A stretch of DNA of 64,000 nucleotides. Source: Brevibacterium permense (GTDB lineage Bacteria; Actinomycetota; Actinomycetes; Actinomycetales; Brevibacteriaceae). The stretch covers positions 124,001 to 188,000 of the forward strand of contig NZ_JABSSX010000006.1 of assembly GCF_013280495.1 (NCBI RefSeq), written 5' to 3'. The position numbers and the translations under genes were made by a program. Positions 28,950 through 45,148 of this stretch are shown here, piece after piece (positions within the stretch are counted from its first letter, which is position 1; every line of letters starts with the position of its first letter). The notes beneath the pieces were generated by a model. The model was not told the origin of the DNA. It did not search any database and saw only the letters and a program-made list of their open reading frames with translations.

Positions 28950-29344
28950 AGCACGCCGCCGCGTCGCTGTGGTAGGACTATGACGCTGAGTTCCCGGGTT
29001 CGACTACGGGGCTGCAACTTGTAATCCTCTTGACCCGGGTCTTCCTCGTCCGCCCCGTTTTCCAGTCGTCGGAGGTCCGCTGCTGGGCAGTCGCTCGGGC
29101 GGTGGCTCGCGGTTGCGATCAAACGTCCACAGGAGGAGGTCGGGCCACGGATTCGGTGGCCCGACCCGGCCGCGCGGTTGCTCTACTCCAAGGCCTCCTG
29201 ACTGGCCGACACCCCCGCTAGGGCGAGACTCCGCCCTGTTGTGGGGTGTCGGCCGGTCACTCGCCCCGCAGGCTGAAGAGCTGTTCGGCGCAGACCCGAG
29301 ACTTCAATCCCCTGGATCAGAGTGCTGGTCGACAGCTAACCGAT
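28950..29344. other. Gene-free stretch holding two strong hairpins
   Basis: No convincing gene on either strand. At 29138-29166 an 11-bp perfect stem (GGTCGGGCCAC with its complement) closes a 7-nt loop. At 29201-29257 a 15-bp stem with one G-T pair (core GGCCGACACCCC at 29204-29215 with 29243-29254) encloses a second 6-bp stem (29220-29225 with 29232-29237). Neither is followed by a T-run. GACCCGGGTC, a 10-bp palindrome, lies near 29034. They could end transcription of the ABM gene or belong to an old mobile element. Confidence 0.5.
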
Positions 29345-29843
29345 TGCCAAGATCATTTACGTCGTGTCTCCTTTGTCGGCGGATCCTTGTCAGGATCTCG
29401 CTGATCACGATGGCCGGTCGATAGATGACTGCGAGCTTGTCATACCTCGTCTCCGGCCCTCGCCATTGCCTGACTTAGGCAAACCAACGCTCGACGACAT
29501 TGCGGTTGCGATAAGCTCCGGAATCGAACGCCGGCGGCCGTCCACTTTTGCCGACGCGTTTCGTACCAGTTGCGTTCTGGTCTTTCCTCTCCGGGATCTC
29601 CGCCCGAATTCCACGTGAACGCAGGTATTCGAGTGGCTTCTTGATCCATAAGCACGATCGTCCAAGACCACAGCTGGAGGTCTGCGAGGATGACCGGCAC
29701 CGCCGAAGATCGACTCTTACCGTCACGGCACGGTGGATCTTCACCGTCAGCCCACCACGCGAGCGACAGATGCTGTGGTCGGCCGGTCGCGGTGCCGCAT
29801 GCGAACACAGTATCAAGACGTCAGTGTCAGAATCTCCTCGCAA
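29345..29843 (-). mobile_element. IS5-type transposase remnant
   Basis: Three minus-strand frames each carry pieces of an IS5-group DDE transposase: SICRSRGGLTVKIHRAV, then DDRAYGSRSH, then RGIRAEIPERKDQNATGTKR followed by GRPPAFDSGAYRNRNVVERWFA, and finally VRQWRGPETRYDKLAVIYRP. Several frameshifts separate them and the N-terminal third is missing, so it is dead. I could not define terminal inverted repeats. Its upstream end overlaps the last codons of the PH-like gene. Confidence 0.75.
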
Positions 29844-30300
29844 GATACACTTTGTGGCCGTCGATGAGCGCGCGTTGCGCCTCGGTGTGGTCAGGCGGGG
29901 AGAGAATGTTCGCCGGGTTCGTCGGAGATAACCACAGTGAGTCGATTTCGACGATCCGACCGTCTCGCAGGCGCGCTGCCCCAGCCAGCCGATAGCGTGA
30001 ACCGGGAGCCGGTAGGAGAATGCGGTCGAGATCCCGCCAGGCGATCCGATGAGGTCTGCCGGTGAAGCCGCACCAGATGAACTCCTCTGGAGTGATCTCC
30101 AACCGGGCGCGTGAACCCATGTGGAAATTCACCCACGCGCCGATGAGCGCGATGACCGGTGTGAAGAGGAAGATGAGAAAGAATGGTTCGGCGAAGATCG
30201 CCAGGAGGATCACCGTGATGGACGCGAGAATCGCCATGACGACGAGCATCCAGCCGACGAATGTCGAGATGTTCCCCTCGCGTCTGATGACGTTGTTCAT
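29827..30300 (-). CDS. Membrane protein with PH-like C-terminal domain
   Basis: 157 residues. Two hydrophobic segments near residues 14-35 and 38-58 are followed by a soluble part with a bacterial PH-like pattern (RLEITPEEFIWCGFTGRPHRIAWRDLDRILL, shown here in two parts: RLEITPEEFIWCG and RPHRIAWRDLDRILL). Function unknown. The last few codons lie in the IS remnant, so the original C-terminus may have been altered by the insertion. A long hairpin separates it from the BCCT gene upstream. Confidence 0.6.
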   Translation of the reverse strand: MNNVIRREGNISTFVGWMLVVMAILASITVILLAIFAEPFFLIFLFTPVIALIGAWVNFHMGSRARLEITPEEFIWCGFTGRPHRIAWRDLDRILLPAPGSRYRLAGAARLRDGRIVEIDSLWLSPTNPANILSPPDHTEAQRALIDGHKVYLARRF

Positions 30301-30324
30301 CTATCGACGTCCTTTCCCTCAGAA

Positions 30325-30380
30325 CTACCTGACGGCGGCCCAGCAACCTCGCGCGAGGTAGCTGGGCCGCCGTCAGGTAG
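30325..30380 (-). terminator. 56-nt near-perfect hairpin downstream of the BCCT gene
   Basis: The 20-nt arm at 30325-30344 is exactly complementary to 30361-30380, and the sequence between them, ACCTCGCGCGAGGT (30346-30359), is itself a perfect palindrome. Only the A/A pair at 30345/30360 does not match. It begins 11 nt past the BCCT stop, reading minus strand, without a strong T-run. A terminator is likely; because the stem is so long it may also be a dispersed repeat. Confidence 0.7.
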
Positions 30381-30390
30381 CAATTGGGGG

Positions 30391-32175
30391 TTAGTTCTTC
30401 GCTGAGGTGTCCTTGTCGTCGGCAGGGTCGTCCTCGATGTGGAGTTCCGAGGTTTCGAGGCCGAAGATCTCGCCGTCGTACTCGTCGACCGCGGTGGCCA
30501 CCGAGGTCTCGAGCACGTGTGCGGCCAGCTGTTCCTGGATGATGAGAGGATCCTTCGACAGGTCCTTCCAGACAGCCACGCACAGCAGCAGCATGACGAT
30601 GACGAACGGCAGGGCGGAGACGATCGTGATGTTCTTCAGTCCGTCGAGCGCCTCGGCGGGGTCAGTTCCGCCCGCCAACAGCATGACCGCAGCCACGGCA
30701 CCGGTCGCGGTGCCCCAGAAGATGACGAGGCCCTTGCCCGGCTCCTGCATGCCATTGGCCGACAGCGTGCCCATAACGATCGACGCGGAATCCGCACCGG
30801 TGACGAAGAAGATCGCGATGAGGACGACCGTGACGATCATGAGGATGATCGCAATGAGGTTCGGCAGCGGCAGAGCGCCGAGGAGGTCGAACAGGATCGT
30901 GTCCATGTTGATGTCCGGTTCGCCGTCGACGACCTTCGCCAGCGTCTTGACCGTGCCCTCGCCGCGTTCGGCGCGTTCCTGGATGCCGATGGCGCCGCCG
31001 CCGAAGATCGCGAACCAGATGGTCGAGACGACGGAGGGGACGATGAGGACGCCGGTGACGAACTGACGGACGGTGCGACCTCGCGAGATGCGCGCGATGA
31101 ACAGGCCGACGAAGGGCGACCATGACACCCACCATGCCCAGTAGAAGACCGTCCACGACGACAGCCACTCATTGACACCCTGACCGTGGGCAGCCGTGCG
31201 CGAAGCCAGCTGCGGCAGGTCCTGGATGAACGCACCCACCGAGGAGGGGATGACGTTGAGGATGAACAGCGTCGGTCCGCCGATGAAGACGATGAGGGCG
31301 ACGATGACAGCGAGCACCATGTTGATGTTCGACAGCCACTGGATGCCCTTCTCCACGCCCGACACCGCCGAGGCGACGAATGCGGCCGTGAGGATCGCGA
31401 TGATGGTGACGAGCACCGGTGAGGAGACATCGGACATGATGCCTGCGGACTCGATGCCGCCGCCGATCTGGATGGCACCCAAGCCCAGCGAGCAGGCCGA
31501 ACCGAACAGAGTCGCGAGGATCGCGAGGATGTTGATGACCTTGCCGCCGATTCCGTTGACGGCGCGTTCGCCGAACAGCGGGGTGAACATCGACGAGAAC
31601 AGCTGCGAGCGTCCCAGACGGAACGAGCCGTAGGCCACGCCGAGACCGACGATGGCGTACATCGCCCACGGGTAGAGCGTCCAGTGGAACAGAGTGGTTC
31701 CCATGGACGTGCCCATCGCCTCGGCGGTCGAGCCGTCGACGGTGTTCGGTGGAGGCGACATGTAGAAGAAGAGAGGCTCGCCGACCGCGGAGAACACGAG
31801 TCCGATGCCCATGCCCGTGGCGAACATCATCGCGATCCACGAGGAGGTTTTGAACTCCGGCTTCTCATCGTCCTTGCCCAGAGGGATCCGACCGAACTTG
31901 CTGACGGCGACGACGATGACGAAGATCGTGAAGATCGTGGCGGCGATGACGAAGAGCCACCCGAAGTTGTCCATCACTCCGGTCAGCAGCGTTCCCGCCA
32001 CCGAACCGAGGGTCTCGGGGGACACGAAGCCCCAGACGACGAAAGCGACGGCGAGGATGCCGGCCGCGAAGAAGACCACTTTGTCCAGACCCTCACGTTT
32101 GAAAGGCCGGAGCGCGGTCGTCGGATGCTTCAGGTGCTCGATGAGCTCCTGAGTCTTTGTATGTTCACTGCTCAT
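30391..32175 (-). CDS. BCCT-family betaine/choline/carnitine transporter
   Basis: 594 residues with 12 expected helices. The family signature is clear in WTVFYWAWWVSWSPFVGLF followed by IARISRGRTVRQF, and GMGIGLVFSAVGEP is the glycine-rich segment of helix 3. An acidic C-terminal tail of about 60 residues ends the protein; in BetP-type carriers the tail senses osmotic stress. Likely imports a quaternary ammonium compatible solute with Na+. Start at 32175 (MSSEHTKTQEL). The substrate is not determinable here. Confidence 0.9.
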   Translation of the reverse strand: MSSEHTKTQELIEHLKHPTTALRPFKREGLDKVVFFAAGILAVAFVVWGFVSPETLGSVAGTLLTGVMDNFGWLFVIAATIFTIFVIVVAVSKFGRIPLGKDDEKPEFKTSSWIAMMFATGMGIGLVFSAVGEPLFFYMSPPPNTVDGSTAEAMGTSMGTTLFHWTLYPWAMYAIVGLGVAYGSFRLGRSQLFSSMFTPLFGERAVNGIGGKVINILAILATLFGSACSLGLGAIQIGGGIESAGIMSDVSSPVLVTIIAILTAAFVASAVSGVEKGIQWLSNINMVLAVIVALIVFIGGPTLFILNVIPSSVGAFIQDLPQLASRTAAHGQGVNEWLSSWTVFYWAWWVSWSPFVGLFIARISRGRTVRQFVTGVLIVPSVVSTIWFAIFGGGAIGIQERAERGEGTVKTLAKVVDGEPDINMDTILFDLLGALPLPNLIAIILMIVTVVLIAIFFVTGADSASIVMGTLSANGMQEPGKGLVIFWGTATGAVAAVMLLAGGTDPAEALDGLKNITIVSALPFVIVMLLLCVAVWKDLSKDPLIIQEQLAAHVLETSVATAVDEYDGEIFGLETSELHIEDDPADDKDTSAKN

Positions 32176-32424
32176 AGTGATCGGGCCGATCGGGGCGGGT
32201 CCTCGGTGACACGAATGAGAACGGGCTGCCGGCTCGGCGTTCCTTCCTTGAATGGACTGCATCGGACAGGTGGCCGAAGGGATCCGAGCCGAGTGTGCAC
32301 CCGAACGCCTCTCGCACATGATCATGACAGCCCATGGGCGATGATGGTCGGAGTCCCCTCATCTCGGACCACCATCGGTCGCCTTTCGCTGTGCTTCACC
32401 GTCACACAGATGCGGCGAATAGTG

Positions 32425-32454
32425 AGGGGCCCTGCCGCGCACGACAGGGCCCCT
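32425..32454 (-). terminator. Terminator of tRNA-Asn
   Basis: AGGGGCCCTG (32425-32434) pairs perfectly with CAGGGCCCCT (32445-32454) around a 10-nt loop. It is 6 nt beyond the 3' end of tRNA-Asn on the minus strand. Confidence 0.65.
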
Positions 32455-32459
32455 TCCAG

Positions 32460-32532
32460 CTCCCCCGGCTGGGCTCGAACCAGCGACCCTTCGATTAACA
32501 GTCGAATGCTCTGCCAACTGAGCTACGGAGGA
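32460..32532 (-). tRNA. tRNA-Asn (anticodon GTT)
   Basis: Read on the minus strand, a 73-nt cloverleaf: acceptor TCCTCCG with CGGGGGA (one G-T pair) and discriminator G; D-arm around AGCTCAGTTGGCAGAGC; anticodon stem TTCGA/TCGAA closing loop CTGTTAA; T-arm GCTGG TTCGAGC CCAGC. CCA is not encoded. It stands between the BCCT gene and smc. Confidence 0.95.
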
Positions 32533-32619
32533 AAACGGCGCAGTCGCCTACGCACGAGGAGAAACTCTACCAAAAGATTCGGGATCTCGCCGCCGCCTGC
32601 GGATATGCTGGTGCCCAAT

Positions 32620-35600
32620 ATGCATCTCAAAAGCCTGACACTGCGGGGGTTCAAGTCCTTCGCCTCGGCGACGACCCTTCGATTCGAGCCGGGAATCACC
32701 TGCGTCGTCGGACCGAACGGCTCGGGCAAGTCCAATGTCGTCGACGCCCTGTCCTGGGTGATGGGCGAACAGGGTGCGAAGAATCTGCGCGGCGGAAAGA
32801 TGGACGACGTCATCTTCGCCGGAACCTCGAAACGTCAGGCCCTGGGACGCGCCGAGGTGACTCTGACCATCGACAACACCGACGGAGCCATCCCCGTCGA
32901 CTACACCGAGGTGACCATCTCGCGGACCCTGTTCCGCACCGGCGGATCCGAGTACGCCGTCAACGGGGCACCGGCGAGGCTGCTCGACATCCAAGAGCTG
33001 CTCAACGACTCCGGCCTGGGCAAGGAGATGCACGTCATCGTCGGTCAGGGCCGCCTCGACGCGATCCTCCATGCCGACCCGCTGGAGAGGCGCAGCTTCA
33101 TCGAAGAGGCCGCCGGGGTGCTCAAGCACCGACGCCGCAAGGACAAAGCGGTCCGCAAACTCACCGGACTGCAGACGAACCTCGACCGGCTGACGGATCT
33201 GCGCACCGAACTCAACCGGCAGCTGGGGCCCTTGGGGCGGCAGGCCGAAGCCGCCGCGAAGGCAGCGACCGTGCAGGCGACGCTGCGTGACGCCACCGCC
33301 AGACTGCTCGCCGACGATGCCGTGCGGATGCAGTCCTCCTTGGCCTCGACGAGCGAGGGCGAAGATCACAGCGACCGCATCGCCGAACTCGACCACCGCC
33401 GCACCCGCGCCGAGGCGCGCCTGTCGGAGATCGAAGCTCGGCTGTCCGAACTCGACAGCGAACTCGACGTCCAACGCACCGCCGAATCGCGGACACAGAC
33501 GCAGGTCGTTCGTGCTCAGGGCTTAAGCCAACGTGCCGCGGACAAGCGCTCCCACCTGCTCTCGGAGGTCACGAGCCTGGGGCAGAGGGAAGCGAAGTCA
33601 CCCGAAGAGCTGCGCGCCCAGGCCGAACGCAACCGCTCCGAACTCACCGACGCCGAGGCGGCCGTGACCGAGAAGACGAACGCACTCGAGGCCAGCCAGC
33701 AGCGGAAGGAAGAGCTCACCCGAGCCTTGCGCACCGCCGAAGACGAGGTCAAGGCCGCACAGATCGCCATCACCGAAGCAGTGAAGAACCGCTCGGCGCT
33801 GCAGTCCAGGCAGACGCAGGCGGCCGAGCGGATCACCGACCTCAAGACCCGGATCGAAGCCAACCGTGCGGAGATCGACACCGTCACCGCCCGCATCGCC
33901 GAGCGTGAGAGCGAACTCGAATCGGCCGAGACCGGTGTCGAGGACGTCGAAGCCGGTGAGACCGAACTCGACTCCGCCTACGAGGCGGCGCAGGAGAGCC
34001 TCGAGAAGCTGGAAACCGAACGCACTCAGCTGCAGGAGCAGCGGGCGCAGGTCGTCTCCGAACTGTCATCGGCGAAAGCCCGCGCGGAAGCTCTGGCGTT
34101 GGGCACGGCTCTGGAAGCCGATCTCGAAGACATCGTCAATGCGGACCTGCCGGGAGTGCGCACGGCCGTAACGGAACGCCTGAGCGTCGACCACGGGTTC
34201 GAAATGGCTGCGGCCGCGGCCCTGTCGACGACGGTCTCCGGCGTCATCGTCGACGACAGCGCAGCGGCGCTGGCAGTGCTCGACCACCTCGGCGAGGACA
34301 CGAATGTGTCGCTGACGATCCCCGCCGGGGTCGAACCAGCAGCCGGGAAAGGCGGTGGGAGTGCCCTTGACTCTCTGCCGGAACTGCCGGGGCTGGGGGA
34401 CCTGCGATGGCTCTCCGACGTCGTCGACAGCGACGTCCCCGAACTGCGCGCTCTGCTGGCCCGGGCCCTGCACGGTGTCGTCTGCGTCCCCGATGCGCGC
34501 ACCGGAATCGAACTCACCGCGGCCCGGCCCGAACTCACCGCCGTCACCGTCCACGGTGAGGTGCTCACCGCGACCCGCATCAGCCGGGCCCGCACCGCCT
34601 CGGGCACACGGCTGGCCTCACAGACCGCGCTCGAGGACACCCATTCCCTCATCGCCGATCTCGACGGCCGGGCGGAAAAGCTCGACGCCTCCTTGAGGGA
34701 ACTCGAACCGCGCCTGACCGCGGCACGTGAGGAATCAGCCGCAGCCCTCGACGCTCTCCACTCCTCGGATGCGAAGATCATGGCCGCGGCCGAAGAGGTC
34801 TCGCGCATCACCGGCGAGATCGGTGTGGCTCGCACTCGCCTGCAGCGCGCGCAGGAGAACGCGACCGAACTCGAATCCCGCCTCGCCGCCGCCGAACGTG
34901 ACTCTCAGTCGGCCGCGGCAGCACTGGCCGGAGCCGCCGAGGTCAACGAAGTCGTCGATACCGCCGCTCGGGACGAACTCAGCACACAGGTCGCCCAATC
35001 CTCGGAAGACCTCGTCGAAGCCCGCATCAGCCACCGGTCGGCTGCCGACCGGGCGCGGTTCTTAGGCGACCGGGTCGACTCCCTCCTGCGGGCGGCGAAG
35101 GCCGAAGAAGCGGCGCGGGAGCAGACACAGCGCACGATCGCGAAGAAGAAGCGCGCGGCCGCCTCGGTGCAGCTCATCGCCGAAACCGCAGCCGAAGCCG
35201 CGGAGCTGGCCACCTCCACGGTGGCCGAGCTCGGTGAGGCGATCCAGGTCCTCGTCGACGAACGCGGCGGTCTGCGCGAAGAGAAAGGCCGCCTCGGCGA
35301 GGAATTGGGATCGACGCGAACCCAGCTGCAGAAGCTCAAGGACGCCGCCGCCGAAGCCGAACTCGCGAAAGAGCGTTTCCGGCTGAGGCTCGAGGAGATC
35401 GCGCATCGATCGGAGGAGGAGACGGGGCTGGGAATCGACCGTCTCATCGACGAATTCGGCCCGCACCTGCCCGTTCCGTCGTTCGAGGAGGACGCCCAGG
35501 ACCGCGCGTATGTGCGCGCCGAAGTGGAGAAGCGGCAGAAGCAGGCGGCGTCCCAGCTCAAGCGCATCGGCACGGTCAATCCGCTCGCGCTCGAGGAGTA

Positions 35601-36159
35601 TGAGGCGCTGAAGGAACGGCATCAGTTCCTCGAGAAGCAGATCGCGGACATCGAATCCTCCCGCAAGGACCTCATGCAGCTCGTCGAGGAGGTCGACCGA
35701 CACGTCGAACGCGTCTTCGCCGAAGCCTATGCGGATACGGCGCGGGAGTTCGAAGACATCTTCGCCCGCCTCTTCCCCGGCGGTGAGGGCGCACTGAGCC
35801 TGACCGATCCGAACGATATGCTCACCACCGGCGTTGACGTTCACGCCCGCCCGGCCGGAAAGAAGGTCAAACGTCTGTCTCTGCTCTCCGGAGGGGAGCG
35901 GTCGCTGGTGGCCGTAGCTATGCTCGTCGCGATCTTCAAGGCCCGGCCGAGCCCGTTCTACGTCATGGACGAGGTCGAAGCGGCCCTCGACGATCTCAAC
36001 CTCTCGCGGCTGCTCACAGTGTTCAAGGAGCTGCAGGATTCCTCGCAGCTCATCGTCATCACCCACCAGAAGCGGACGATGGAGATCGCCGACGCCCTCT
36101 ACGGAGTGACGATGCACGGCGACGGGGTGTCGAAAGTCATATCGCAGCGGATTCCGTGA
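32620..36159 (+). CDS. smc: Chromosome segregation protein SMC
   Basis: 1179 residues, full length. N-terminal MHLKSLTLRGFKSFASATTL and Walker A GPNGSGKS (residues 31-38); coiled-coil arms; hinge around residues 495-650 (with a Gly/Pro-rich insert); second coiled coil; C-terminal signature LSGGERSL (from 1089) and Walker B FYVMDEVEAALDD (from 1113). It compacts and segregates the chromosome with ScpAB, which are not in this window. ATG 32620 is chosen over the ATG 15 nt upstream because it matches the family N-terminus. Confidence 0.96.
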   Translation: MHLKSLTLRGFKSFASATTLRFEPGITCVVGPNGSGKSNVVDALSWVMGEQGAKNLRGGKMDDVIFAGTSKRQALGRAEVTLTIDNTDGAIPVDYTEVTISRTLFRTGGSEYAVNGAPARLLDIQELLNDSGLGKEMHVIVGQGRLDAILHADPLERRSFIEEAAGVLKHRRRKDKAVRKLTGLQTNLDRLTDLRTELNRQLGPLGRQAEAAAKAATVQATLRDATARLLADDAVRMQSSLASTSEGEDHSDRIAELDHRRTRAEARLSEIEARLSELDSELDVQRTAESRTQTQVVRAQGLSQRAADKRSHLLSEVTSLGQREAKSPEELRAQAERNRSELTDAEAAVTEKTNALEASQQRKEELTRALRTAEDEVKAAQIAITEAVKNRSALQSRQTQAAERITDLKTRIEANRAEIDTVTARIAERESELESAETGVEDVEAGETELDSAYEAAQESLEKLETERTQLQEQRAQVVSELSSAKARAEALALGTALEADLEDIVNADLPGVRTAVTERLSVDHGFEMAAAAALSTTVSGVIVDDSAAALAVLDHLGEDTNVSLTIPAGVEPAAGKGGGSALDSLPELPGLGDLRWLSDVVDSDVPELRALLARALHGVVCVPDARTGIELTAARPELTAVTVHGEVLTATRISRARTASGTRLASQTALEDTHSLIADLDGRAEKLDASLRELEPRLTAAREESAAALDALHSSDAKIMAAAEEVSRITGEIGVARTRLQRAQENATELESRLAAAERDSQSAAAALAGAAEVNEVVDTAARDELSTQVAQSSEDLVEARISHRSAADRARFLGDRVDSLLRAAKAEEAAREQTQRTIAKKKRAAASVQLIAETAAEAAELATSTVAELGEAIQVLVDERGGLREEKGRLGEELGSTRTQLQKLKDAAAEAELAKERFRLRLEEIAHRSEEETGLGIDRLIDEFGPHLPVPSFEEDAQDRAYVRAEVEKRQKQAASQLKRIGTVNPLALEEYEALKERHQFLEKQIADIESSRKDLMQLVEEVDRHVERVFAEAYADTAREFEDIFARLFPGGEGALSLTDPNDMLTTGVDVHARPAGKKVKRLSLLSGGERSLVAVAMLVAIFKARPSPFYVMDEVEAALDDLNLSRLLTVFKELQDSSQLIVITHQKRTMEIADALYGVTMHGDGVSKVISQRIP

Positions 36160-36397
36160 TCGGCAGTCCGCTCTTCGGCCGGCGCGCCCGAGGTGGCAGG
36201 CCCGCCGCTGGGGCACAAGGCCGTTTGACGGTGATGCCCAGGACAGTCCCAGGGAATTTTGCAACCGCCGCACGGCGGGCGAGCACAATAGTCGTGGCCG
36301 GGGACTATAGACTTGGGCCGAGACACAGGAATTCGAAGAACGTGAGGAGCGCGACGTCCATGGCCGAGGCTGCTGTACTGCGAGGTGGCTCGAGGGC

Positions 36398-36799
36398 ATG
36401 AATTCGGTACTTGTCGTCATCGTCGGACTCGCGATCTCCTTCGCCCTGGCACTCGTCGTCGTCCTTCTCGTGGCTCTGCCCGGCCTGCGCGCCGAAGGAC
36501 GCCTGCGATACTCCTCCGACGTGCAGCGATTCCGTCTGCCGCCCGAGTGGACCGGCTACGACGACGAAGTCCACGAATTCTTCGGCCATGATGACGGCAC
36601 CTCCCACTTAGCGACCAGGGAACAGGCGGCGGTGACCGCGATCCGCGATCACTCCTATGTGCTCCGGCCGCAGCCCCGACGCCATGCCGCGCCCTCGCTC
36701 ATCACGGTCCGCCCGCGCACCCGCCACTGGAAGATCCCCGAGTCCGGAACAGGGTGGAAGACCACCGCCGGGCTGCTCTTCGGCAGCCGCGGATCCTGA
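36398..36799 (+). CDS. Hypothetical single-pass membrane protein
   Basis: 133 residues. An N-terminal helix (VLVVIVGLAISFALALVVVL, then LVALPGL) is followed by a polar, arginine/histidine-rich region ending in a serine-rich tail. No family recognised. It lies between smc and ftsY in the same direction. Codon bias is normal for the window, so a real gene is likely. Confidence 0.6.
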   Translation: MNSVLVVIVGLAISFALALVVVLLVALPGLRAEGRLRYSSDVQRFRLPPEWTGYDDEVHEFFGHDDGTSHLATREQAAVTAIRDHSYVLRPQPRRHAAPSLITVRPRTRHWKIPESGTGWKTTAGLLFGSRGS

Positions 36800-36959
36800 C
36801 CTGAGACCCATGCGGCCTTGAGCGGTCGAGGCCCGCGACAATGGAGACCGCGCCGACTGATTCCGGCGCGCTCACCGACACACTGACACCACCGGAAGAG
36901 TCCGGGAACTCGAGTGCCGGCGGCCCGAACGGCGGCACTCAAAGGAGGACGGAAGAACC

Positions 36960-38102
36960 ATGGATCAGCCGATCATCTTGCTCATCGTCGCGGCGATCGT
37001 GTTCGCTCTCGTCGTCGGCGTGGGCATCTCGCTGCGCGTCAATGCGCGCAAGAAGGGCCTCGATGACAGGCGCGGCATCGATGCGGAGGTCACCGGTGAG
37101 CTGAGCATCGATGACGTCGCCGAGGCGGTCGAGAAGGACAAGGCCGAAGCGCGCGGTTCCGAGGTTCCCACCGAACCGGCCAGCCGCCTCGTCCGCCTGC
37201 GTGAGCGCCTGGCGAAGTCGAACAGCGGGCTCGGGCGCGGATTGCTCAACCTCCTCTCCCGTGACAATCTCGACGAGTCCGCCTGGGAGGAGATCGAGGA
37301 TACGCTCATCCTCGCCGACGTCGGCGTCGAACCGACGACCGAGCTCGTCGACCGCCTGCGCGAACGCGTCAAGGTGCTCGGCACCCGGGATCCCGAAGAG
37401 GTCCGCGGGCTGCTGCGCGAAGAGCTCATCAAACTCGTCGATCCGACGATGGACCGCTCGCTCGCCGATACCGGCAAGGACGGTGACCCCTCCGTCATCC
37501 TCGTCGTCGGGGTCAACGGTGCCGGGAAGACGACGACGGTGGGCAAGATCGCCCGTGTGCTCGTCGCCGAGGACAAGTCAGTTCTGCTCGGCGCCGCGGA
37601 CACCTTCCGCGCCGCCGCGGCCGAACAGCTGTCCACATGGGGTGAACGCGTCGGCGTCGAAACCGTGCGCAAGGAAGAAGGCGCCGATCCCGCCTCGGTG
37701 GCCTACTCGGCCGTCGAGAAGGGACAGGCCGACGGTTCCGACGTCGTCCTCATCGACACCGCCGGACGTCTGCAGAACAAACGCGGACTCATGGACGAAC
37801 TCGGCAAGGTCAAACGAGTGGCCACCCGACCGCTGGGGGAGGGCCACGAGATCGACGAGGTGCTCCTCGTCCTCGACGCGACCACCGGTCAGAACGGCAT
37901 GCAGCAGGCGAAGGTCTTCGCCGAGGCGGTCGACATCACCGGAATCGTGCTCACCAAGCTCGACGGCACCGCGAAGGGCGGAATCGTCGTCGCCGTCCAG
38001 CGTGAACTCGGGGTGCCGGTCAAACTCATCGGCCTCGGCGAAGGCGCGGACGACCTGGCCCCATTCACCGCCGAAGGGTTCGTCGACGCCCTGCTCGACT
38101 GA
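36960..38102 (+). CDS. ftsY: Signal recognition particle receptor FtsY
   Basis: 380 residues. An N-terminal membrane helix (PIILLIVAAIVFALVVGV) replaces the long acidic A domain of proteobacteria, as usual in actinobacteria. The NG domain has GVNGAGKTTTVGK near residue 184, DTFRAAAAEQL, DTAGRLQNK and TKLDGTAKGG. It docks Ffh-ribosome complexes to the membrane. AAAGGAGGA precedes the ATG. Confidence 0.96.
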   Translation: MDQPIILLIVAAIVFALVVGVGISLRVNARKKGLDDRRGIDAEVTGELSIDDVAEAVEKDKAEARGSEVPTEPASRLVRLRERLAKSNSGLGRGLLNLLSRDNLDESAWEEIEDTLILADVGVEPTTELVDRLRERVKVLGTRDPEEVRGLLREELIKLVDPTMDRSLADTGKDGDPSVILVVGVNGAGKTTTVGKIARVLVAEDKSVLLGAADTFRAAAAEQLSTWGERVGVETVRKEEGADPASVAYSAVEKGQADGSDVVLIDTAGRLQNKRGLMDELGKVKRVATRPLGEGHEIDEVLLVLDATTGQNGMQQAKVFAEAVDITGIVLTKLDGTAKGGIVVAVQRELGVPVKLIGLGEGADDLAPFTAEGFVDALLD

Positions 38103-38164
38103 GGGCTGATTGAACGCTCAGCAGTCCCGACGGCAGTGTCGCGCAACTGACCCCGCGCATTCTT

Positions 38165-38209
38165 CGAGCCTGGTCTCACCCGCATATTCGCAGGGTGAGA
38201 CCAGGCTCG
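38165..38209 (+). terminator. Terminator after ftsY
   Basis: A perfect 17-bp stem: CGAGCCTGGTCTCACCC (38165-38181) with 38193-38209, loop 11 nt. It starts 63 nt past the ftsY stop and separates ftsY from the amt control region. No T-run follows. Confidence 0.7.
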
Positions 38210-38242
38210 TCACATTCCGGAAACATTGACGACTCACCACTG

Positions 38243-38290
38243 TGACATGCGTCATGCAGACTATGTCTGCCCGGTTCGATTCGGAACCGG
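38243..38290 (+). promoter_or_regulatory. Cluster of three palindromes upstream of amt
   Basis: TGACATGCGTCA (38243-38254), GCAGAC-TAT-GTCTGC (38256-38270) and CCGGTTC-GATTCG-GAACCGG (38271-38290) follow one another within 48 bp and end 21 nt before the amt ATG. Ammonium transporter genes in actinobacteria are controlled by AmtR or GlnR; I cannot match these repeats firmly to either consensus. The last one may instead be an mRNA hairpin. Confidence 0.45.
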
Positions 38291-38311
38291 CCGAGACACG
38301 AAAGAGACGAC

Positions 38312-39532
38312 ATGGAACTCGATGCAGTGAATGTATGGATGATGGTCGCCGCGGGGTTGGTGCTGCTCATGACCCCCGGGGTGGCGTTCTTCTACGGAGG
38401 AATGACGCGGATCACCTCGGCGATCAATATGATGATGATGGTCTTCTCCGCGATGGCCGTCGGTGGACTCGTCTGGGTCCTCTTCGGCTACGGACTGAGC
38501 TCCGGTGACTCGATCGCCGGAATCGTCGGCAACCCGCTGTCCGAACTCGGACTCACCGGCTCGGTCGCGAACGACCCGGCCTCGCTGATCTCCATCGGCT
38601 ACGGTTCGACGTTCGCGATGATCGCGATCGCCCTCATCGCCGGCGCGGTCGCCGACCGGGCGAAGTTCTCCACCTGGCTGGTCTTCTCCGCCGCGTGGGT
38701 GACCCTCGTCTACTGCCCCCTGGCGTTCATGGTCTGGGGAGACGGACTGCTCAGCGAATCCGGTGCGATCGGCAGTCTGTTCGGGCCGGCCATCGACTTC
38801 GCCGGAGGCACGGTCGTCCACATCAATGCCGGCATCTCCGCCCTCGTGCTCGTCGTCGTCATGGGGCGTCGCGCCCGCTTCTCGACCCCGCACAAGCCGC
38901 ACAACATCCCGATCACCGTGCTTGGTGCGGCCCTGCTGTGGTTCGGCTGGTTCGGCTTCAACGGCGGTGCCGCCACCACCATCGAACAGGGCGGACTCAT
39001 CTGGATCAACACGCTGGCAGCACCTGCCGCCGGCATGATCACCTGGATCATGATCGAACGCCTGCGGGCCTCGCGACCGAGCAGCATCGGCAGCGTCTCG
39101 GGAGCGATCGCCGGCCTCGTCGCGATCACCCCGGCGTGTGCGAACGTCGATCCCTATGCGGCCATCCTCATCGGAATCGCGGCAGGCGCCGGTGCGATCT
39201 TCGCCGTCGAAGCGAAGAACCGTCTGCGCTATGACGATGCGCTCGATGTCGTGGCCGTCCACCTCGTCGCCGGAATCATCGGCACCGTGATGATCGGGTT
39301 CTTCGCCTTCCCGAACGAAGACGGACCGGCCGGCCTCTTCTACGGAGGCGGACTCGAACTCCTCGTTGCACAGGTGCTCGCCTGTCTCGTGGCCATCGTC
39401 TTCGCCGGTCTCGTCACGCTCGCGATCTCCCTGGTCCTGCGCTCGACGATGGGGCTGCGGATCGACCCGCGGGAGGAACTCGAGGGAATCGACACCTTCG
39501 AACACGCCGAGCAGGCCTACTCGTTCCGGTGA
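38312..39532 (+). CDS. amt: Ammonium transporter
   Basis: 406 residues, about 11 membrane helices. Typical blocks: FFYGGMTRITSAINMMMM, FAGGTVVHINAGISALVL with the first pore histidine, ALLWFGWFGFNGGAA and the late DVVAVHLVAGIIGT with the second pore histidine. The C-terminal tail (RSTMGLRIDPREELEGID) is short and contains the region regulated by PII proteins. No glnK follows, which is the common partner; it must be elsewhere. Confidence 0.94.
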   Translation: MELDAVNVWMMVAAGLVLLMTPGVAFFYGGMTRITSAINMMMMVFSAMAVGGLVWVLFGYGLSSGDSIAGIVGNPLSELGLTGSVANDPASLISIGYGSTFAMIAIALIAGAVADRAKFSTWLVFSAAWVTLVYCPLAFMVWGDGLLSESGAIGSLFGPAIDFAGGTVVHINAGISALVLVVVMGRRARFSTPHKPHNIPITVLGAALLWFGWFGFNGGAATTIEQGGLIWINTLAAPAAGMITWIMIERLRASRPSSIGSVSGAIAGLVAITPACANVDPYAAILIGIAAGAGAIFAVEAKNRLRYDDALDVVAVHLVAGIIGTVMIGFFAFPNEDGPAGLFYGGGLELLVAQVLACLVAIVFAGLVTLAISLVLRSTMGLRIDPREELEGIDTFEHAEQAYSFR

Positions 39533-39544
39533 CCCCAACAGACG

Positions 39545-39587
39545 CCCGTTCACGCGGCCGGTGGGTCTCGCCGGCCGCGTGAACGGG
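39545..39587 (+). terminator. Terminator after amt
   Basis: CCCGTTCACGCGGCCGG (39545-39561) pairs perfectly with 39571-39587 over 17 bp, loop 9 nt, starting 12 nt past the amt stop. Confidence 0.75.
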
Positions 39588-39611
39588 GGAGAGTGCGACG
39601 TCGTGCTCATT

Positions 39612-39656
39612 GATCGCCTCGGCAGGGTGGAAGCAGACCACCCCGCCGAGGCGATC
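39612..39656. other. Second long hairpin between amt and ffh
   Basis: GATCGCCTCGGC (39612-39623) pairs with 39645-39656, and inside it GGGTGG (39625-39630) pairs with CCACCC (39638-39643), giving an almost continuous stem. It stands 24 nt after the amt terminator and ~185 nt before ffh. It could be a back-up terminator or part of the ffh leader region. Confidence 0.55.
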
Positions 39657-39840
39657 GGCCGTTCCGAGTGCAGGTGAAGCATTTGTGCCGCCTCGTCGTT
39701 CGGCAATTGACGAATACGGGAAGGCCAGCGCCACCTCGGTGAGGGTTCACGGGGCATTAACAGCACTCTTGGTTTCAGCCCGGCACGGATGAGTTGCTAG
39801 TCTAGAGAGTCGACCAAACCATCGTGAAGAAGGCTTGTAC

Positions 39841-41451
39841 GTGTTTAACTCTCTGTCCGACAGGCTCACCGCGACTTTCAAGAATCTGCGCGGGAAGGGC
39901 CGGCTGTCCGAAGCCGACGTCGATGCCACCATTCGTGAGATCAGACGTGCCCTGCTCGACGCCGACGTCGCCCTGCCTGTCGTGCGTGCCTTCACCGGCC
40001 GGATCCGCGAGCGGGCGCTGTCCGAGGAGGTCTCGGGCGCACTCAACCCCGGCCAGCAGGTCGTCAAGATCGTCAACGACGAACTCGTCGGCATCCTCGG
40101 CGGCCAGACCCGTCGCCTCAACTTCGCCAAGCGTCCGCCGACGGTCATCATGCTCGCCGGCCTCCAGGGTGCAGGTAAGACCACCCTGGCCGGAAAGCTC
40201 GCCCACTGGCTGAAGTCCGAGGGCCATCGGCCGATGCTCGTCGCGGCCGACCTGCAGCGTCCCAACGCCGTCAACCAGCTCCAGATCGTCGGCGAGCGTG
40301 CCGGTGCCGTGGTCTACGCCCCGGAACCGGGCAATGGCGTCGGTGATCCGATCCAGGTCGCCACCGACTCGATCGAGGTCGCGAAGTCCAAACTCCACGA
40401 CGTCGTCATCGTCGATACGGCCGGCCGCCTCGGCATCGACGAGGAGCTTATGCAGCAGGCCGCGGACATCCGCAGCGCGGTCAACCCCGACGAAGTCCTC
40501 TTCGTCATCGACGCGATGATCGGTCAGGACGCGGTGAAGACCGCCGAGGCGTTCCTCGACGGCGTCGACTTCACCGGCGTCGTGCTCTCGAAGCTCGACG
40601 GCGACTCCCGCGGTGGTGCCGCGCTGTCCGTCGCAGAGGTGACCGGAAAGCCGATCATGTTCGCCTCCACGGGCGAATCGATGAAGGACTTCGAGCAGTT
40701 CCATCCGGACCGGATGGCCGATCGGATCCTCGATATGGGCGACATCATGACGCTCATCGAGCAGGCCGAGAAGAACTTCGACGAAAAAGAGACCGAGAAG
40801 CTCAAGAAGAAGGTCGAATCTGGTGAGGACTTCGACCTCAACGACTTCCTCACGCAGATGGCGGGCCTGAAGAAGATGGGCTCGATGAAGAAGATGCTGG
40901 GCATGATGCCCGGCATGAGCCAGTACAAGGAGCAGCTGGCGAACTTCGACGAGCGTGAGGTCGACCGGGTCGAAGCGATTGTGAGATCGATGACACCGCA
41001 GGAACGTTCCGACCCGAAGATCCTCAACGGCTCCCGTCGCGCTCGCATCGCCAAGGGCGCCGGCACCACGGTCACCGCGGTCAACCAGCTCATGGAGCGC
41101 TTCACCCAAGCGCAGAAGATGATGCGGTCGATGACCCGCGGCGGCGGAATGCCCGGAATGCCCGGTGGCGGAGGTATGCCGCAGATGCCCGGAATGGGCG
41201 GAATGCCTGGTGCCGCAGGTGGTAAGAAGAAGAAACCCGCAGGGAAGAAGAAGGGCCGCAAGGGCGGTCAGTCGGGCAACCCGGCCAAGCGTGCGCAGGA
41301 GGCGCAGGCGCTGGCGGACAAGAAGGCGGGCAAGACCCAGGACCCGGTCGGCTCGGCCTTCGGCGGAGTCGATCTGGGCAAGGACGAGGACTTCGATCCG
41401 GCGAATCTGCCCAAGGGCTTCGGCGGAATCTTCCCAGGTGGCAAGAAGTAG
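39841..41451 (+). CDS. ffh: Signal recognition particle protein Ffh
   Basis: 536 residues from a GTG at 39841, preceded by GAAGAAGG. The GTPase domain has GLQGAGKTT (from about Gly107), DLQRPNAV, VDTAGRLGID and SKLDGDSRGG. The methionine-rich M domain binds signal peptides and 4.5S RNA (GSMKKMLGMMPGM). The C-terminal GGMPGMPGGGGMPQMPGMGG stretch and a Lys-rich segment extend it. Partner of FtsY at 36960. TAGTCT at 39798-39803 is a -10 candidate. Confidence 0.96.
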   Translation: MFNSLSDRLTATFKNLRGKGRLSEADVDATIREIRRALLDADVALPVVRAFTGRIRERALSEEVSGALNPGQQVVKIVNDELVGILGGQTRRLNFAKRPPTVIMLAGLQGAGKTTLAGKLAHWLKSEGHRPMLVAADLQRPNAVNQLQIVGERAGAVVYAPEPGNGVGDPIQVATDSIEVAKSKLHDVVIVDTAGRLGIDEELMQQAADIRSAVNPDEVLFVIDAMIGQDAVKTAEAFLDGVDFTGVVLSKLDGDSRGGAALSVAEVTGKPIMFASTGESMKDFEQFHPDRMADRILDMGDIMTLIEQAEKNFDEKETEKLKKKVESGEDFDLNDFLTQMAGLKKMGSMKKMLGMMPGMSQYKEQLANFDEREVDRVEAIVRSMTPQERSDPKILNGSRRARIAKGAGTTVTAVNQLMERFTQAQKMMRSMTRGGGMPGMPGGGGMPQMPGMGGMPGAAGGKKKKPAGKKKGRKGGQSGNPAKRAQEAQALADKKAGKTQDPVGSAFGGVDLGKDEDFDPANLPKGFGGIFPGGKK

Positions 41452-41608
41452 AGCCTTCTGGCACAATTGACTCTTGTACTTTTGCTCTCGGTCCGGGCCC
41501 TCTCATCCGCGCCGAAGTGATAGTCCGAGCCGCGGCTTCCAGCAGATCAACCCCACGATTCTTCTGGTACAGCTGTGCACACAGAACACAAAAGGAGACA
41601 CCACTAAA

Positions 41609-42040
41609 GTGGCAGTCAAAATTCGTCTGACCCGCATGGGCAAGATCCGTGCACCCTTCTACCGCGTCGTCGTCGCTGACTCGAAGACTCGTCGTGACGG
41701 TAAGGCCATCGAACAGATCGGCATCTACCACCCGACCCGTGAGCCTTCGGTCATCGAGATCGATTCCGAGCGCGCGCAGTACTGGCTCGGCGTCGGCGCA
41801 CAGCCGAGCGACCAGGTCAAGGCTCTGCTCAAGCTCACCGGCGACTGGCAGAAGTTCAAGGGCGAAGGTGAAGCGGTCAACACCGTGAAGCCGCAGCCTG
41901 AGAAGGAATCCTACGTGGCCCCGAACGCCGAATCGGTGATCAAGGAAGCCATCACGCAGAAGGGCGGCAAGTCCGCTGAAGCTGCCGAGGAAGCAGCCGA
42001 AGCCGCACCTGAGGCCGCTGAAGAAAGCGCTGAAGCCTGA
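41609..42040 (+). CDS. rpsP: 30S ribosomal protein S16
   Basis: 143 residues from GTG 41609 after [31 protein letters not shown] is S16 ([18 protein letters not shown]). Beyond residue ~100 there is an alanine/glutamate-rich tail ([21 protein letters not shown], in part), an extension common in actinobacterial S16. khpA begins 1 nt after the stop. Confidence 0.95.
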
Positions 42041-42041
42041 G

Positions 42042-42272
42042 ATGTTGCCTGATTCGCTCGAACATCTGGTCCGCGGAATCGTCGATCATCCCGACGACGT
42101 CTTCGTTCGTTCGCGTTCTTCGCAGCGCGGCACGACCCTCGAGGTCCGGGTTCACCCCGAGGACCTCGGCCGGGTCATCGGCCGTGCAGGCAGGACCGCC
42201 AAGGCCCTGCGCACCGTGATGAACTCGCTGGCCGGCCGTGAGTCGGTGCGAGTGGACCTCATCGAGGCGTAA
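42042..42272 (+). CDS. khpA: KH-domain RNA-binding protein KhpA
   Basis: 76 residues, a single KH domain with GxxG motif in GRVIGRAGRTAKALRTVM. It lies between rpsP and rimM as in most Gram-positive bacteria. KhpA binds RNA, often with KhpB, and affects cell division in some species. Confidence 0.92.
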   Translation: MLPDSLEHLVRGIVDHPDDVFVRSRSSQRGTTLEVRVHPEDLGRVIGRAGRTAKALRTVMNSLAGRESVRVDLIEA

Positions 42273-42283
42273 TTCCAACATCT

Positions 42284-42321
42284 GAGAGGGGATGCAGCGC
42301 ACATGCGCTGCGTCCCCTCTC
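42284..42321 (+). terminator. Terminator after khpA
   Basis: GAGAGGGGATGCAGCGC (42284-42300) pairs with 42305-42321 over 17 bp with one G-T pair and a 4-nt loop. It starts 11 nt past the khpA stop. TACACT near 42346 could be the -10 of a new promoter for rimM. Confidence 0.75.
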
Positions 42322-42452
42322 GTGCATTCACTTAACCGTCGCCGACTACACTGGTGGCTGAGCACGGCGGCCCGCCGTACGACCGCAGAAGCGCAGTCAC
42401 CTCAGTGCAGGGCCGGCCGAACAGACAGCGACAGCAGACTTCGAGGAGCAGT

Positions 42453-42953
42453 ATGGACACGGTGATCGCCCGGCTGGGCAAGCCGCACGGAATCAAGGGC
42501 GAGTTCACCGTCGAGGTGCGCACCGACCGACCCGAGGACCGGCTCAATCCAGGGGCGACCTTCGCCACGGATCCCGATATCGGAGAGCTGACGCTGAAGT
42601 CGGCGAGGTGGCACCGCGATCGCCTGCTCCTGGCATTCGACGAGGTCCCCGACCGCAACCGCGCCGAGGAGATCCGCAACACCCTCATCCTCGCCGAGGC
42701 GGATGAGGACGAAGACGAAACCGACGCCTGGTACCTCGACGACCTCATCGGCCTCAAGGTCTATGAGAATGACGCCCTCGTAGGCGAGATCGTCGACGTC
42801 ACGAACGGGACCGCCCAGGATCTGCTCCACATGAAGCACACCGCCGGTCACGTTGTGCTCATCCCCTTCGTCACCGAGATCGTGCCCGATGTCGACATCG
42901 ACTCAGGACGCGTCACCGTCACCCCGCCCGCCGGCCTCTTCGACGCCGAGTGA
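42453..42953 (+). CDS. rimM: 16S rRNA processing protein RimM
   Basis: 166 residues from ATG 42453 after [28 protein letters not shown] marks the N-terminal RimM domain; [20 protein letters not shown] begins the C-terminal PRC barrel; [14 protein letters not shown] ends it. Needed for 30S head maturation with S19. Stop overlaps the trmD GTG by 4 nt. Confidence 0.94.
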
Positions 42954-43873
42954 GCGGACCGTTCCCGATGAATGGCAGCGACACTCCCACCGAGGCTATC
43001 GCAACGGACCCGGTGACCCAGGGTGCGACCCCCGCCGCGGCGGGCGGACCGCAGATGTCGATCGATATCGTGTCGATCTTCCCCGAATATCTCGCCGGAC
43101 TGCAGCTCTCGCTCATCGGCAAGGCCGTCGATCGTGGTCAGCTGAGCCTCGGCGTCCACGACCTGCGGGACTTCACCTTCGACCGGCACAACACCGTCGA
43201 TGACTCGCCCTATGGCGGGGGAGCGGGAATGGTCATGAAGGCCGAACCCTGGGCGCTGGCTCTCGAGCACATCCTCGCGGAACGCGGCAGCGCTGCGGTG
43301 GGTGAAGGTGCGGACGGTGCTCGGACCGCCGGTCCGGCAGCCGGAGGCAAGCCGACGCTCATCGTGCCCAGCCCCGCCGGGCAGGTGTTCGACCAGCGCA
43401 TCGCCGAGGATCTCGCCGCCCGCGACCACCTCGTCTTCGCCTGCGGACGCTACGAAGGAATCGACCAGCGAGTCATCGATTGGGCCGGGGAGCACTTCGA
43501 CCTGCTGCCCATGAGCATCGGCGACTATGTCCTCAACGGCGGTGAAGTCGCCTCGATGGTGATGATCGAAGCGGTCAGCCGCCTCATCCCCGGCGTCATC
43601 GGAAACCCCGAGTCGCTGACCGAGGAGAGCCACGAAGACGGACTGCTCGAATACCCGATCTATACGAAGCCGGCGTCCTGGCGCGGACGCAAAGTGCCCG
43701 AGATCCTGCTCAGCGGCAACCACGCCGCGATCGCCAGGTGGCGACGTGACCGACGTCTCGAACGCACCGCGGATGTCAGACCGGATCTGCTTGAGAAGCT
43801 CGATGACCTGAGCAAAGACGACCTGGCGGCGCTCGAGCGGTTTGAGTCTGAGCGCTCAACCGTGACAGAATAG
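42950..43873 (+). CDS. trmD: tRNA (guanine37-N1)-methyltransferase
   Basis: SPOUT-class methyltransferase with [27 protein letters not shown] and [19 protein letters not shown]. The usual family N-terminus ([13 protein letters not shown]) is at residue 36 (ATG 43055). The GTG at 42950 overlaps rimM by GTGA and would add 35 residues with normal codon bias but no known homology; the true start may be either. An Ala/Gly-rich insertion (nt ~43290-43350) lies in the middle. Confidence 0.93.
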
Positions 43874-43888
43874 AGCGTCGCGTTTGTT

Positions 43889-43919
43889 GGCACTCACCTG
43901 CTTCAGGGGGATGAGTGCC
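43889..43919 (+). promoter_or_regulatory. Inverted repeat in the rplS leader
   Basis: GGCACTCA (43889-43896) and TGAGTGCC (43912-43919) pair perfectly around a 15-nt loop, 16 nt past the trmD stop and ~130 nt upstream of rplS. It may be a weak terminator for trmD or an L19 leader structure controlling rplS; I cannot match it to a known leader family. Confidence 0.4.
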
Positions 43920-44046
43920 CACGGTGGCCCGTCGCATCGAATCGGCGGGTCGACGGGGAGAGATCCCGACAGACGATCCAGTTACCGGTTCACCGGTCCG
44001 ATATGCGTGTCCTCGACCTGAAGCAGAGGCCACAGGAGATACCACA

Positions 44047-44388: not shown

Positions 44389-44419
44389 TTTGCCCGGCAC
44401 TGTGGGAGATGATCACACG

Positions 44420-45043: not shown

Positions 45044-45148
45044 GCGCACACACGGAACTGCGCTGAGGCTGAGTGTGCGGCGAGAGTCGTGCTGATACGC
45101 TCGGTTCAGTCCACAGCCGCAGTCCTGGTCCGATGTGAAAGCGAACGA

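What the first reader, a model, noticed from the sequence alone, without database searches (positions are those of the whole stretch)
30325..30380. Very long near-perfect hairpin after the BCCT gene
A 56-nt element with 20-bp arms and a palindromic centre that leaves only one unpaired position. This exceeds what a terminator needs and resembles a nested palindrome or a REP/MITE-like unit. DNA cruciform or RNase III processing is possible.
Basis: seen in the sequence. Interest (0 to 1): 0.5.

Follow-up and report, generated by a model that had tools for sequence, protein, structure and literature searches.

The report
Brevibacterium gene-end palindrome, a transposon landing site
The hairpin is one of dozens of near-identical 56-base palindromes that sit just after gene stop codons across Brevibacterium genomes, and two unrelated jumping genes, one of them RNA-guided, use it as their landing site.

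Summary
The hairpin at 30325-30380 is real: 20-bp arms plus a nested palindromic centre with one A·A mismatch, the strongest hairpin in the window. It is not a single terminator. It belongs to a repeat family. In its own Brevibacterium genome the arm occurs 73 times forward and 80 reverse (2 and 1 for the reversed control), and I read 65 complete copies. The family is dense in a subset of the genus and essentially absent from the rest of the order. Copies sit immediately after stop codons: 49 of 55 lie within 25 nt of a gene end pointing at them, against 12% of random intergenic bases, and their flank often supplies a TAA stop. There is no U-tract, and no RAYT (Y1_Tnp) gene in 41 genus genomes. 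Variants spread between sites within a genome. Two unrelated transposons land only on it in the genomes probed: an IS3-family IS at its exact centre (21 of 21 copies) and an RNA-guided IS110-family IS at its edge (14 of 14), with guide-like segments matching it. It works like an enterobacterial REP, but fails two REP-defining tests. Function is inferred.

The parts
30325..30344 (.). left arm of the palindrome (20 bp)
   Evidence: the arm recurs 73 forward / 80 reverse in the genome at <=3 mismatches
30345..30360 (.). nested palindromic centre, one A-A mismatch; the corresponding spot in other genomes is the insertion point of an IS3-family IS
   Evidence: 21 of 21 IS3 copies in 3 other genomes sit at the centre of sister copies
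30361..30380 (.). right arm of the palindrome (20 bp); the outer 3 bases mark the insertion edge of an IS110-family IS in sister copies
   Evidence: 14 of 14 IS110 copies split sister copies at CAGG/TAG or a variant of it
30381..30389 (-). type A flank (CCCCAATTG read on the minus strand), on the side where the BCCT gene ends
   Evidence: A-type flank is associated with gene-3'-end sides (G000 60A/13B against 14A/23B on 5' sides, p 8.7e-6)
30314..30324 (-). type B flank (TTCTGAGGGAA read on the minus strand), exit side towards the next gene; no U-tract
30391..32325 (-). BCCT-family transporter gene; TAA stop at 30391-30393, 10 nt before the hairpin (start codon uncertain: 32325 or 32175)
   Evidence: PF02028 E 8.7e-163
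29827..30300 (-). small membrane-protein-like gene (157 aa, no Pfam or NCBIfam match), starting 24 nt after the hairpin on the same strand

Best explanation
The hairpin is one copy of a REP-like, species-group-specific family of 56-bp (near-)perfect palindromes in Brevibacterium. Copies are lodged directly behind stop codons, mostly between convergent or same-direction genes, and are transcribed as the 3' end of the upstream mRNA (inferred). I think they act there as very stable RNA hairpins that protect mRNA 3' ends and block or weaken read-through in both directions, without a U-tract (inferred). At the window locus the next gene starts only 24 nt after the hairpin, so it would more likely damp than abolish read-through from the BCCT gene into it (inferred). 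The copies are kept alike by exchange of sequence between sites (shown as shared species-specific variants; gene conversion as the mechanism is inferred). The family also serves as a harmless landing pad: an IS3-family element inserts at the exact centre and an RNA-guided IS110-family element inserts at the outer edge of an arm (positions shown; that the guide RNA does the choosing is inferred from matching guide-like segments).
For: Multi-copy. Genus-restricted. Gene-end position, convergent excess (22 of 55 and 27 of 52 copies against 94 of 477 background gaps), divergent deficit (4 of 55, 3 of 52 against 103 of 477) and element-supplied TAA stops (20 of 23 and 20 of 21 stops lying exactly 3 nt away, against 39 of 658 genome stops). 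Arm covariation at paired positions (p 5e-4 and 2e-5; two further at 0.02). Same sites occupied in relatives. Concerted variants: 1-nt-deleted centre in 9 of 52 copies of G032 and 0 of 56 of G000, and paralogues within G032 (2.15 differences) closer than orthologues (2.41). IS3 at centre 21 of 21. IS110 at edge 14 of 14; transposase families; guide-like segments unpaired in an internal loop.
Against: No transcript data. The exit flanks have only 2.1-2.5 T in 8 nt (>=5 T in 1 of 65), so classical intrinsic termination is unlikely at these sites. Alignment-wide pair counting on 99 copies with flanks included was not better than shuffles (cells paired 85.2% against 85.9%), because most arm columns hardly vary and the flanks do not covary within a copy; only 4 arm pairs and the innermost pair covary. 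Orthologues are still closer than random pairs, and copies within G000 differ more (3.67) than orthologues do, so homogenisation is partial. How the family first spread is not explained: no RAYT, no clean empty site. 4 of 55 and 3 of 52 copies lie between divergent genes by my simple gene caller.
Confidence: 0.66

Rival explanations
1. A repeated factor-independent (or Rho-assisted) transcription terminator and nothing more: selection for efficient termination in both directions explains copy number and position.
For: Position directly behind stop codons and excess between convergent genes. At the BCCT site G024 has an ordinary GC-rich hairpin in place of the palindrome (L220).
Against: No U-tract on exit sides; the terminator scan does not report it; sequence, not only structure, is conserved (22 of 76 columns invariant in 99 copies); next gene starts within 60 nt in 12 tandem copies, one of them the window's (by a simple gene caller).
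Confidence: 0.3
2. A MITE moved by a DDE transposase that recognises the palindrome ends.
For: Short, dispersed, inverted-repeat element; differs in copy number between species.
Against: Nearly all comparable sites are shared between G000 and G032 at about 95% flank identity; the one site empty in G012 shows no clean insertion or target duplication. The two IS elements found do not share its ends: they use it as target.
Confidence: 0.1
3. A DNA-level site: binding or cruciform site for a nucleoid, topoisomerase or recombination protein.
For: Perfect palindrome at DNA level; high sequence conservation at the window site across species (2 of 56 differences from consensus in G059 although the neighbouring protein is 66% identical).
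Against: Strong bias to gene 3' ends and away from divergent intergenic regions is unexpected for a pure DNA site, although it could reflect harmless placement.
Confidence: 0.2
4. The palindromes are by-products of the IS elements, for example sites rebuilt or seeded by IS110 or IS3 excision.
For: Both IS families sit only on palindromes in the genomes probed.
Against: Each IS probe was found in only 3 of 10 genomes; G012, G032 and G068, rich in palindromes, had neither.
Confidence: 0.04

Closest known systems
REP elements (repetitive extragenic palindromes; GTAG and CGTC superfamilies, PMC3733652)
   Same: High copy, extragenic, mostly between convergent and same-direction genes, close to the 3' end of the upstream ORF, ends supply stop codons to flanking ORFs (PMC3733652, abstract, passages and genome-distribution section read); targets of dedicated IS elements including IS3 and IS110 families (PMC1525189, abstract and passages).
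   Different: 56 bp and (near-)perfectly palindromic rather than 20-40 bp; no unpaired GTAG/CGTC tag (GTAG is inside the paired arm); no RAYT gene in 41 genus genomes; found in an actinobacterium (the word Actinobacteria does not occur in the PMC3733652 text).
IS621 (IS110 family) and its bridge RNA, targeting E. coli REP (PMC11208160, passages)
   Same: RNA-guided IS110-family transposase; non-coding region upstream of the transposase with a target-binding-loop-like fold holding a left and a right guide-like segment; target is a palindromic repeat at gene ends; a guide-G/target-A mismatch is tolerated in both.
   Different: Different target sequence, host phylum and guides; bridge RNA function not tested here.
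IS1397 / ISKpn1 (IS3 family) inserting into enterobacterial palindromic units (PMC1525189, passages)
   Same: IS3-family element that inserts specifically into a palindromic repeat; here two ORFs and a 3-4 bp target duplication.
   Different: Different IS and repeat; target is the exact centre of a 56-bp palindrome.
Intrinsic (Rho-independent) terminator
   Same: GC-rich hairpin directly after a stop codon.
   Different: No U-tract, far longer stem, multi-copy with conserved sequence.

Membership tests
REP (GTAG/CGTC superfamilies) | high-copy dispersed extragenic palindrome | tested here: met
REP (GTAG/CGTC superfamilies) | located downstream of genes, between convergent or same-direction ORFs | tested here: met
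   with background from 800 kb of two relatives
REP (GTAG/CGTC superfamilies) | unpaired GTAG or CGTC tetranucleotide at one end | tested here: not met
   GTAG and CTAC are paired within the 20-bp arms
REP (GTAG/CGTC superfamilies) | associated RAYT (Y1_Tnp) transposase (GTAG REPs) | tested here: not met
   PF01797: 0 of 41 genus genomes, with controls ringing in E. coli and 4 others; a RAYT too diverged for this model is not excluded
REP (GTAG/CGTC superfamilies) | target of dedicated IS elements | tested here: met
   IS3 family 21 of 21, IS110 family 14 of 14
MITE | target site duplication at a clean insertion | tested here: inconclusive
   no clean filled/empty pair found among G000/G032/G012
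MITE | terminal repeats shared with an autonomous transposon | tested here: inconclusive
   two IS found at the repeat do not share its ends; no full transposon survey was made
Intrinsic terminator | U-tract after the hairpin | tested here: not met
   1 of 65 exit flanks has >=5 T in 8; not reported by the terminator scan
Intrinsic terminator | transcripts end at it | not testable with these tools
   no transcript data
IS110 family (the edge-inserting IS) | DEDD and C-terminal transposase domains | tested here: met
   PF01548, PF02371; NF033542 201.7 bits over cut-off 140
IS110 family (the edge-inserting IS) | bridge RNA with target guides matching both target sides | tested here: inconclusive
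   guide-like segments lie unpaired on the two sides of an internal loop of the consensus fold and match the target; single-sequence folds pair part of the right segment; binding and recombination not assayed
IS3 family (the centre-inserting IS) | two ORFs, OrfB with rve integrase core | tested here: met
   PF00665 and others; NF033516 301.1 bits over cut-off 160

The most novel reading that the evidence does not exclude
A palindromic gene-end repeat with no RAYT, homogenised across the genome by recombination between copies, is the programmed docking site of an RNA-guided IS110 transposon whose guide sequences change together with species-specific variants of the palindrome. In G078 the guide-like segment CGTCACG matches the altered arm CGTGACG, while in G059 CGTCAGG matches CCTGACG. 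Repeat and RNA-guided transposon would then be co-evolving partners in a safe-harbour relationship.
Probability: 0.42. Interest if true: 0.66.

Novelty: new variant of a known kind. Interest (0 to 1): 0.52.

Why it matters
It extends the REP-like way of life (gene-end palindromes plus palindrome-specific insertion sequences) to an actinobacterial genus, with no RAYT found that could have spread it, so how such families arise and stay uniform becomes testable in a second setting. It also offers a natural multi-copy target with a matching RNA-guided IS110 and several guide/target variants for studying guide-target co-evolution. For annotation, it explains hairpins after many genes in these genomes and some contig breaks in their draft assemblies.

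Tried and rejected
Single-copy terminator: rejected by copy number. RAYT-driven REP: PF01797 found in 0 of 41 genomes. Known RNA family: no Rfam match in 29500-31000. Uptake-signal-like single arms: apart from copies split by an IS or by a contig end, arms occur in pairs in what I read. Apparent plus-strand-only arms between 1.13 and 2.86 Mb of G032 in the listing: a listing effect, since both arms are there. Template-switch extension of the palindrome into the flanks: rejected, flank pairs do not covary within a copy. Palindromes as general breakpoints: only 1 of 26 indels >=700 bp between G012 and G032 over 400 kb lies at palindromes. Clean empty site: the single site empty in G012 (G032:181555) does not align cleanly. 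Literature: searches and passages of two Brevibacterium genome papers (PMC5719810, PMC6579920) show no description of this repeat; most subscription journals are not in that library, and ISfinder was not available, so the two IS elements may already be named.

Rows dropped: 9 of 65 own-genome copies within about 250 bp of contig ends were left out of the counts, because assemblies seem to fold back at perfect palindromes (the flank of L094 repeats that of L100); one further copy lacked a gene call on one side, leaving 55. The first count (57 of 65) included them. The exit-flank count used gene calls and only gene ends within 40 nt. Alignment A1 used 99 of 117 copies (56 bp only, <=3 mismatches per arm). 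One search used 34 of 42 paired sites.

Full report
OBSERVATION. The window reads CTACCTGACGGCGGCCCAGC-AACCTCGCGCGAGGTA-GCTGGGCCGCCGTCAGGTAG at 30325-30380. It folds at -65.1 kcal/mol as RNA, z -10.4, and is by far the best hairpin of the 64-kb window. On the minus strand the order is BCCT gene (TAA stop at 30391-30393), CCCCCAATTG, palindrome, TTCTGAGGGAAAGGA..., then the start codon of a 157-aa gene 24 nt further on. BCCT is PF02028, E 8.7e-163; the 157-aa protein has no Pfam or NCBIfam match.

A REPEAT FAMILY. In the window's own genome (G000, 3.70 Mb, 40 contigs) the 20-base arm with up to 3 mismatches occurs 73 times forward and 80 reverse; the reversed control gives 2 and 1. I fetched 50 stretches and read 65 complete copies (64 plus the window's own) and 5 half copies. 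The consensus is a perfect 56-bp palindrome. Among 59 genomes (own genome included) the arm with <=2 mismatches is found in 22: 16 of 37 of the same genus, often 40-78 per strand, and 6 of 22 outside it, with 1-3 each. Over 198 genomes of the order, 32 have a match at E<=1e-4; the 23 outside the genus have 1-6 matches each. Matching contig lengths identify several hosts: B. sediminis FXJ8.269 (G010), B. iodinum ATCC 49514 (G007), B. permense Ln26 (G034), B. epidermidis NBRC 14811 (G001) and B. linens ATCC 9172 (G069).

WHERE THE COPIES SIT. Gene positions come from a simple codon-usage caller of my own. Leaving out copies near contig ends, 55 copies in G000 lie between convergent (22), same-direction (29) or divergent (4) genes; 52 in the closed genome G032 are 27, 22 and 3. 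In 800 kb of two relatives the intergenic gaps of 20 nt or more are 94 convergent, 280 same-direction and 103 divergent. A gene end points at the palindrome within 25 nt in 49 of 55 (G000) and 44 of 52 (G032), against 11.8% of random intergenic bases. Where the stop codon lies exactly 3 nt away it is TAA in 20 of 23 and 20 of 21 cases, although TAA is 39 of 658 stops overall, so the element's flank (TAATTG/TAATTA) supplies the stop. Sides that face a gene end carry the AATT flank (60 A to 13 B in G000) and sides that face a gene start more often the TTCTGGGG flank (14 A to 23 B), Fisher p 8.7e-6; in G032 62/14 against 13/15, p 9.8e-4 (all). Many sites are shared between the two genomes, so the two sets are not independent.

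AGE AND SAMENESS. 42 of 65 own copies were paired automatically with a palindrome at the same place in G032, at about 95% flank identity. Of the sites examined in further stretches of G032, those whose flanks aligned were also occupied, with one local exception where G000 has two copies about 400 bp apart and G032 one. At the window site the palindrome is present in 11 of the 13 orthologous loci in which, by eye, the BCCT end lies upstream; 6 further hits of the 157-aa gene have other neighbours. In G024 a different GC-rich hairpin stands there instead; in G033 nothing similar is seen. The palindrome at this site differs from the consensus at 2 of 56 bases in G059, where the neighbouring protein is only 66% identical. 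Within a genome, variants are shared between sites: a 1-nt-deleted centre occurs in 9 of 52 copies of G032 and 0 of 56 of G000. Mean differences are 2.41 between orthologues, 2.15 between copies within G032, 3.67 within G000 and 3.07 between non-orthologous copies of the two genomes; orthologues remain closer than random pairings (0 of 5000 permutations). I read this as partial concerted evolution by exchange between copies. Two-sided changes in the arms exceed chance at two paired positions (p 5e-4 and 2e-5) and weakly at two more. The whole-alignment test with flanks does not exceed shuffles, because most arm columns hardly vary and the flanks do not covary.

NOT A CLASSICAL TERMINATOR. Exit flanks have on average 2.5 T (same-direction) or 2.1 T (convergent) in the first 8 nt, and 1 of 65 has 5 or more. 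The terminator scan of 29000-46000 does not list it. Rfam has no match in 29500-31000. In 12 same-direction copies, including this one, the next gene starts within 60 nt by the simple caller, so complete termination there would silence it unless it has its own promoter.

TWO TRANSPOSONS USE IT. Half copies at contig ends revealed an IS inside the centre. The element is about 1.54 kb, with ends TGGAGTGGTCCCC; OrfB matches the IS3-family transposase (NF033516, 301 bits; PF00665) and OrfA HTH families. Junction-selected loci are a biased sample, so I probed 10 genomes with the first 100 bases of the IS alone. It is in 3 of 10, in 21 copies (8 G074, 4 G019, 9 G078), and all 21 lie at the centre of a palindrome; the far side, seen in 16, is the other half each time. 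The duplication is 3-4 bp within the central GCGC. A second IS, 1385 bp, abuts the outer edge of an arm. Its 355-aa transposase is IS110 family (PF01548, PF02371; NF033542 'RNA-guided', 201.7 bits). A 99-base probe finds it in 3 of 10 genomes, in 14 copies (4 G019, 3 G078, 7 G059), and all 14 split the palindrome edge between CAGG (or its variant) and TAG. In two loci (L310, L314) both IS types occupy one palindrome.

GUIDE-LIKE SEGMENTS. In IS621 the bridge RNA pairs with both sides of its target, through a left guide and a right guide in its target-binding loop; in an insertion assay 144 of 173 insertion sites were in REP elements (PMC11208160, passages). In the 302-nt region upstream of the IS110 transposase here, a consensus fold of four versions has a long stem closing an internal loop. 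Its 5' side reads TCTAATTGCTACT (G019) and its 3' side CTCGTCGGGATCT, both unpaired; single-sequence folds keep the outer stem but pair part of the right segment. The 5' side resembles the left target CAATTGCTA; the 3' side CGTCGGG can pair with the right target CCTGACG with one G-T pair. In G059 the right segment is CGTCAGG, fully complementary to CCTGACG in 6 of 7 targets. In G078 (L311, L314) it is CGTCACG, fully complementary to the altered target CGTGACG in 2 of 2. The left segment matches 8 of 8 in three copies (two of four in G019, and L307), 7 of 8 in the other two G019 copies and in all seven of G059, and only 5 of 8 in the two G078 copies with the TTCTGGGG flank (matches counted by eye). 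Function of this RNA is not shown.

RECOMBINATION. In G012 a 21.4-kb segment lies between palindromes at 213841 and 235306, while G032 has one palindrome at 204646 joining the same outer flanks. This is 1 of 26 indels of 700 bp or more in 400 kb, so palindromes are occasional, not general, exchange points.

COMPARISON. PMC3733652 (abstract, passages and the genome-distribution section read) describes REPs as 20-40 bp, mostly tagged by an unpaired GTAG or CGTC, between convergent or same-direction ORFs, close to upstream 3' ends, and sometimes supplying stop codons. PMC1525189 (abstract and passages) shows IS3- and IS110-family elements that target REPs. The present family matches in place and in its parasites but not in the tag, the length or the RAYT. 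I therefore call it REP-like and do not file it as a REP.

VERDICT. The biological role at the mRNA 3' end remains inference. The strongest new result is that two unrelated transposon families are found only on this palindrome in the genomes probed, one of them with guide-like RNA segments that match it.

Noticed in passing
L233:2047-3585 (G074); ends also at L073, L074, L082, L092 of the own genome: IS3-family element of about 1.54 kb found only at the centre of the palindromes (21 of 21 copies in 3 genomes), with a 3-4 bp duplication.
   Followed up: yes
L243:298-1365 (G019); ends also at L059:2069-2167 and the start of L060 in the own genome: IS110-family RNA-guided transposase gene in a 1385-bp element inserted only at the palindrome edge (14 of 14 copies in 3 genomes); guide-like segments in its non-coding region match the palindrome.
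   Followed up: partly
G012:C1:213841-235361 (L277-L278) against G032:C1:204646 (L297): A 21.4-kb segment bounded by palindromes in G012 is replaced by a single palindrome in G032, consistent with exchange between two copies.
   Followed up: partly
ends of G000 contigs C3, C5, C7, C8, C9, C12, C16, C17, C22, C28, C36, C37: Many contig ends of the own assembly fall within a few hundred bases of a palindrome; some end flanks look like fold-back chimeras (L094 and L100 share a flank) or low-quality sequence (L057).
   Followed up: partly
G078 loci L248-L266: In G078 palindrome copies carry arm variants (CGGCGCCCCAGC, GGGCCCCCAGC, GGGTCCCCAGC); where the far side was seen it is complementary, so the arms changed on both sides.
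   Followed up: no
L220, orthologue of the window site in G024: A different GC-rich hairpin (GCCCTGCTCCCCTTCGGTGGGGGCAGGGC) stands after the BCCT gene where other species have the palindrome.
   Followed up: no
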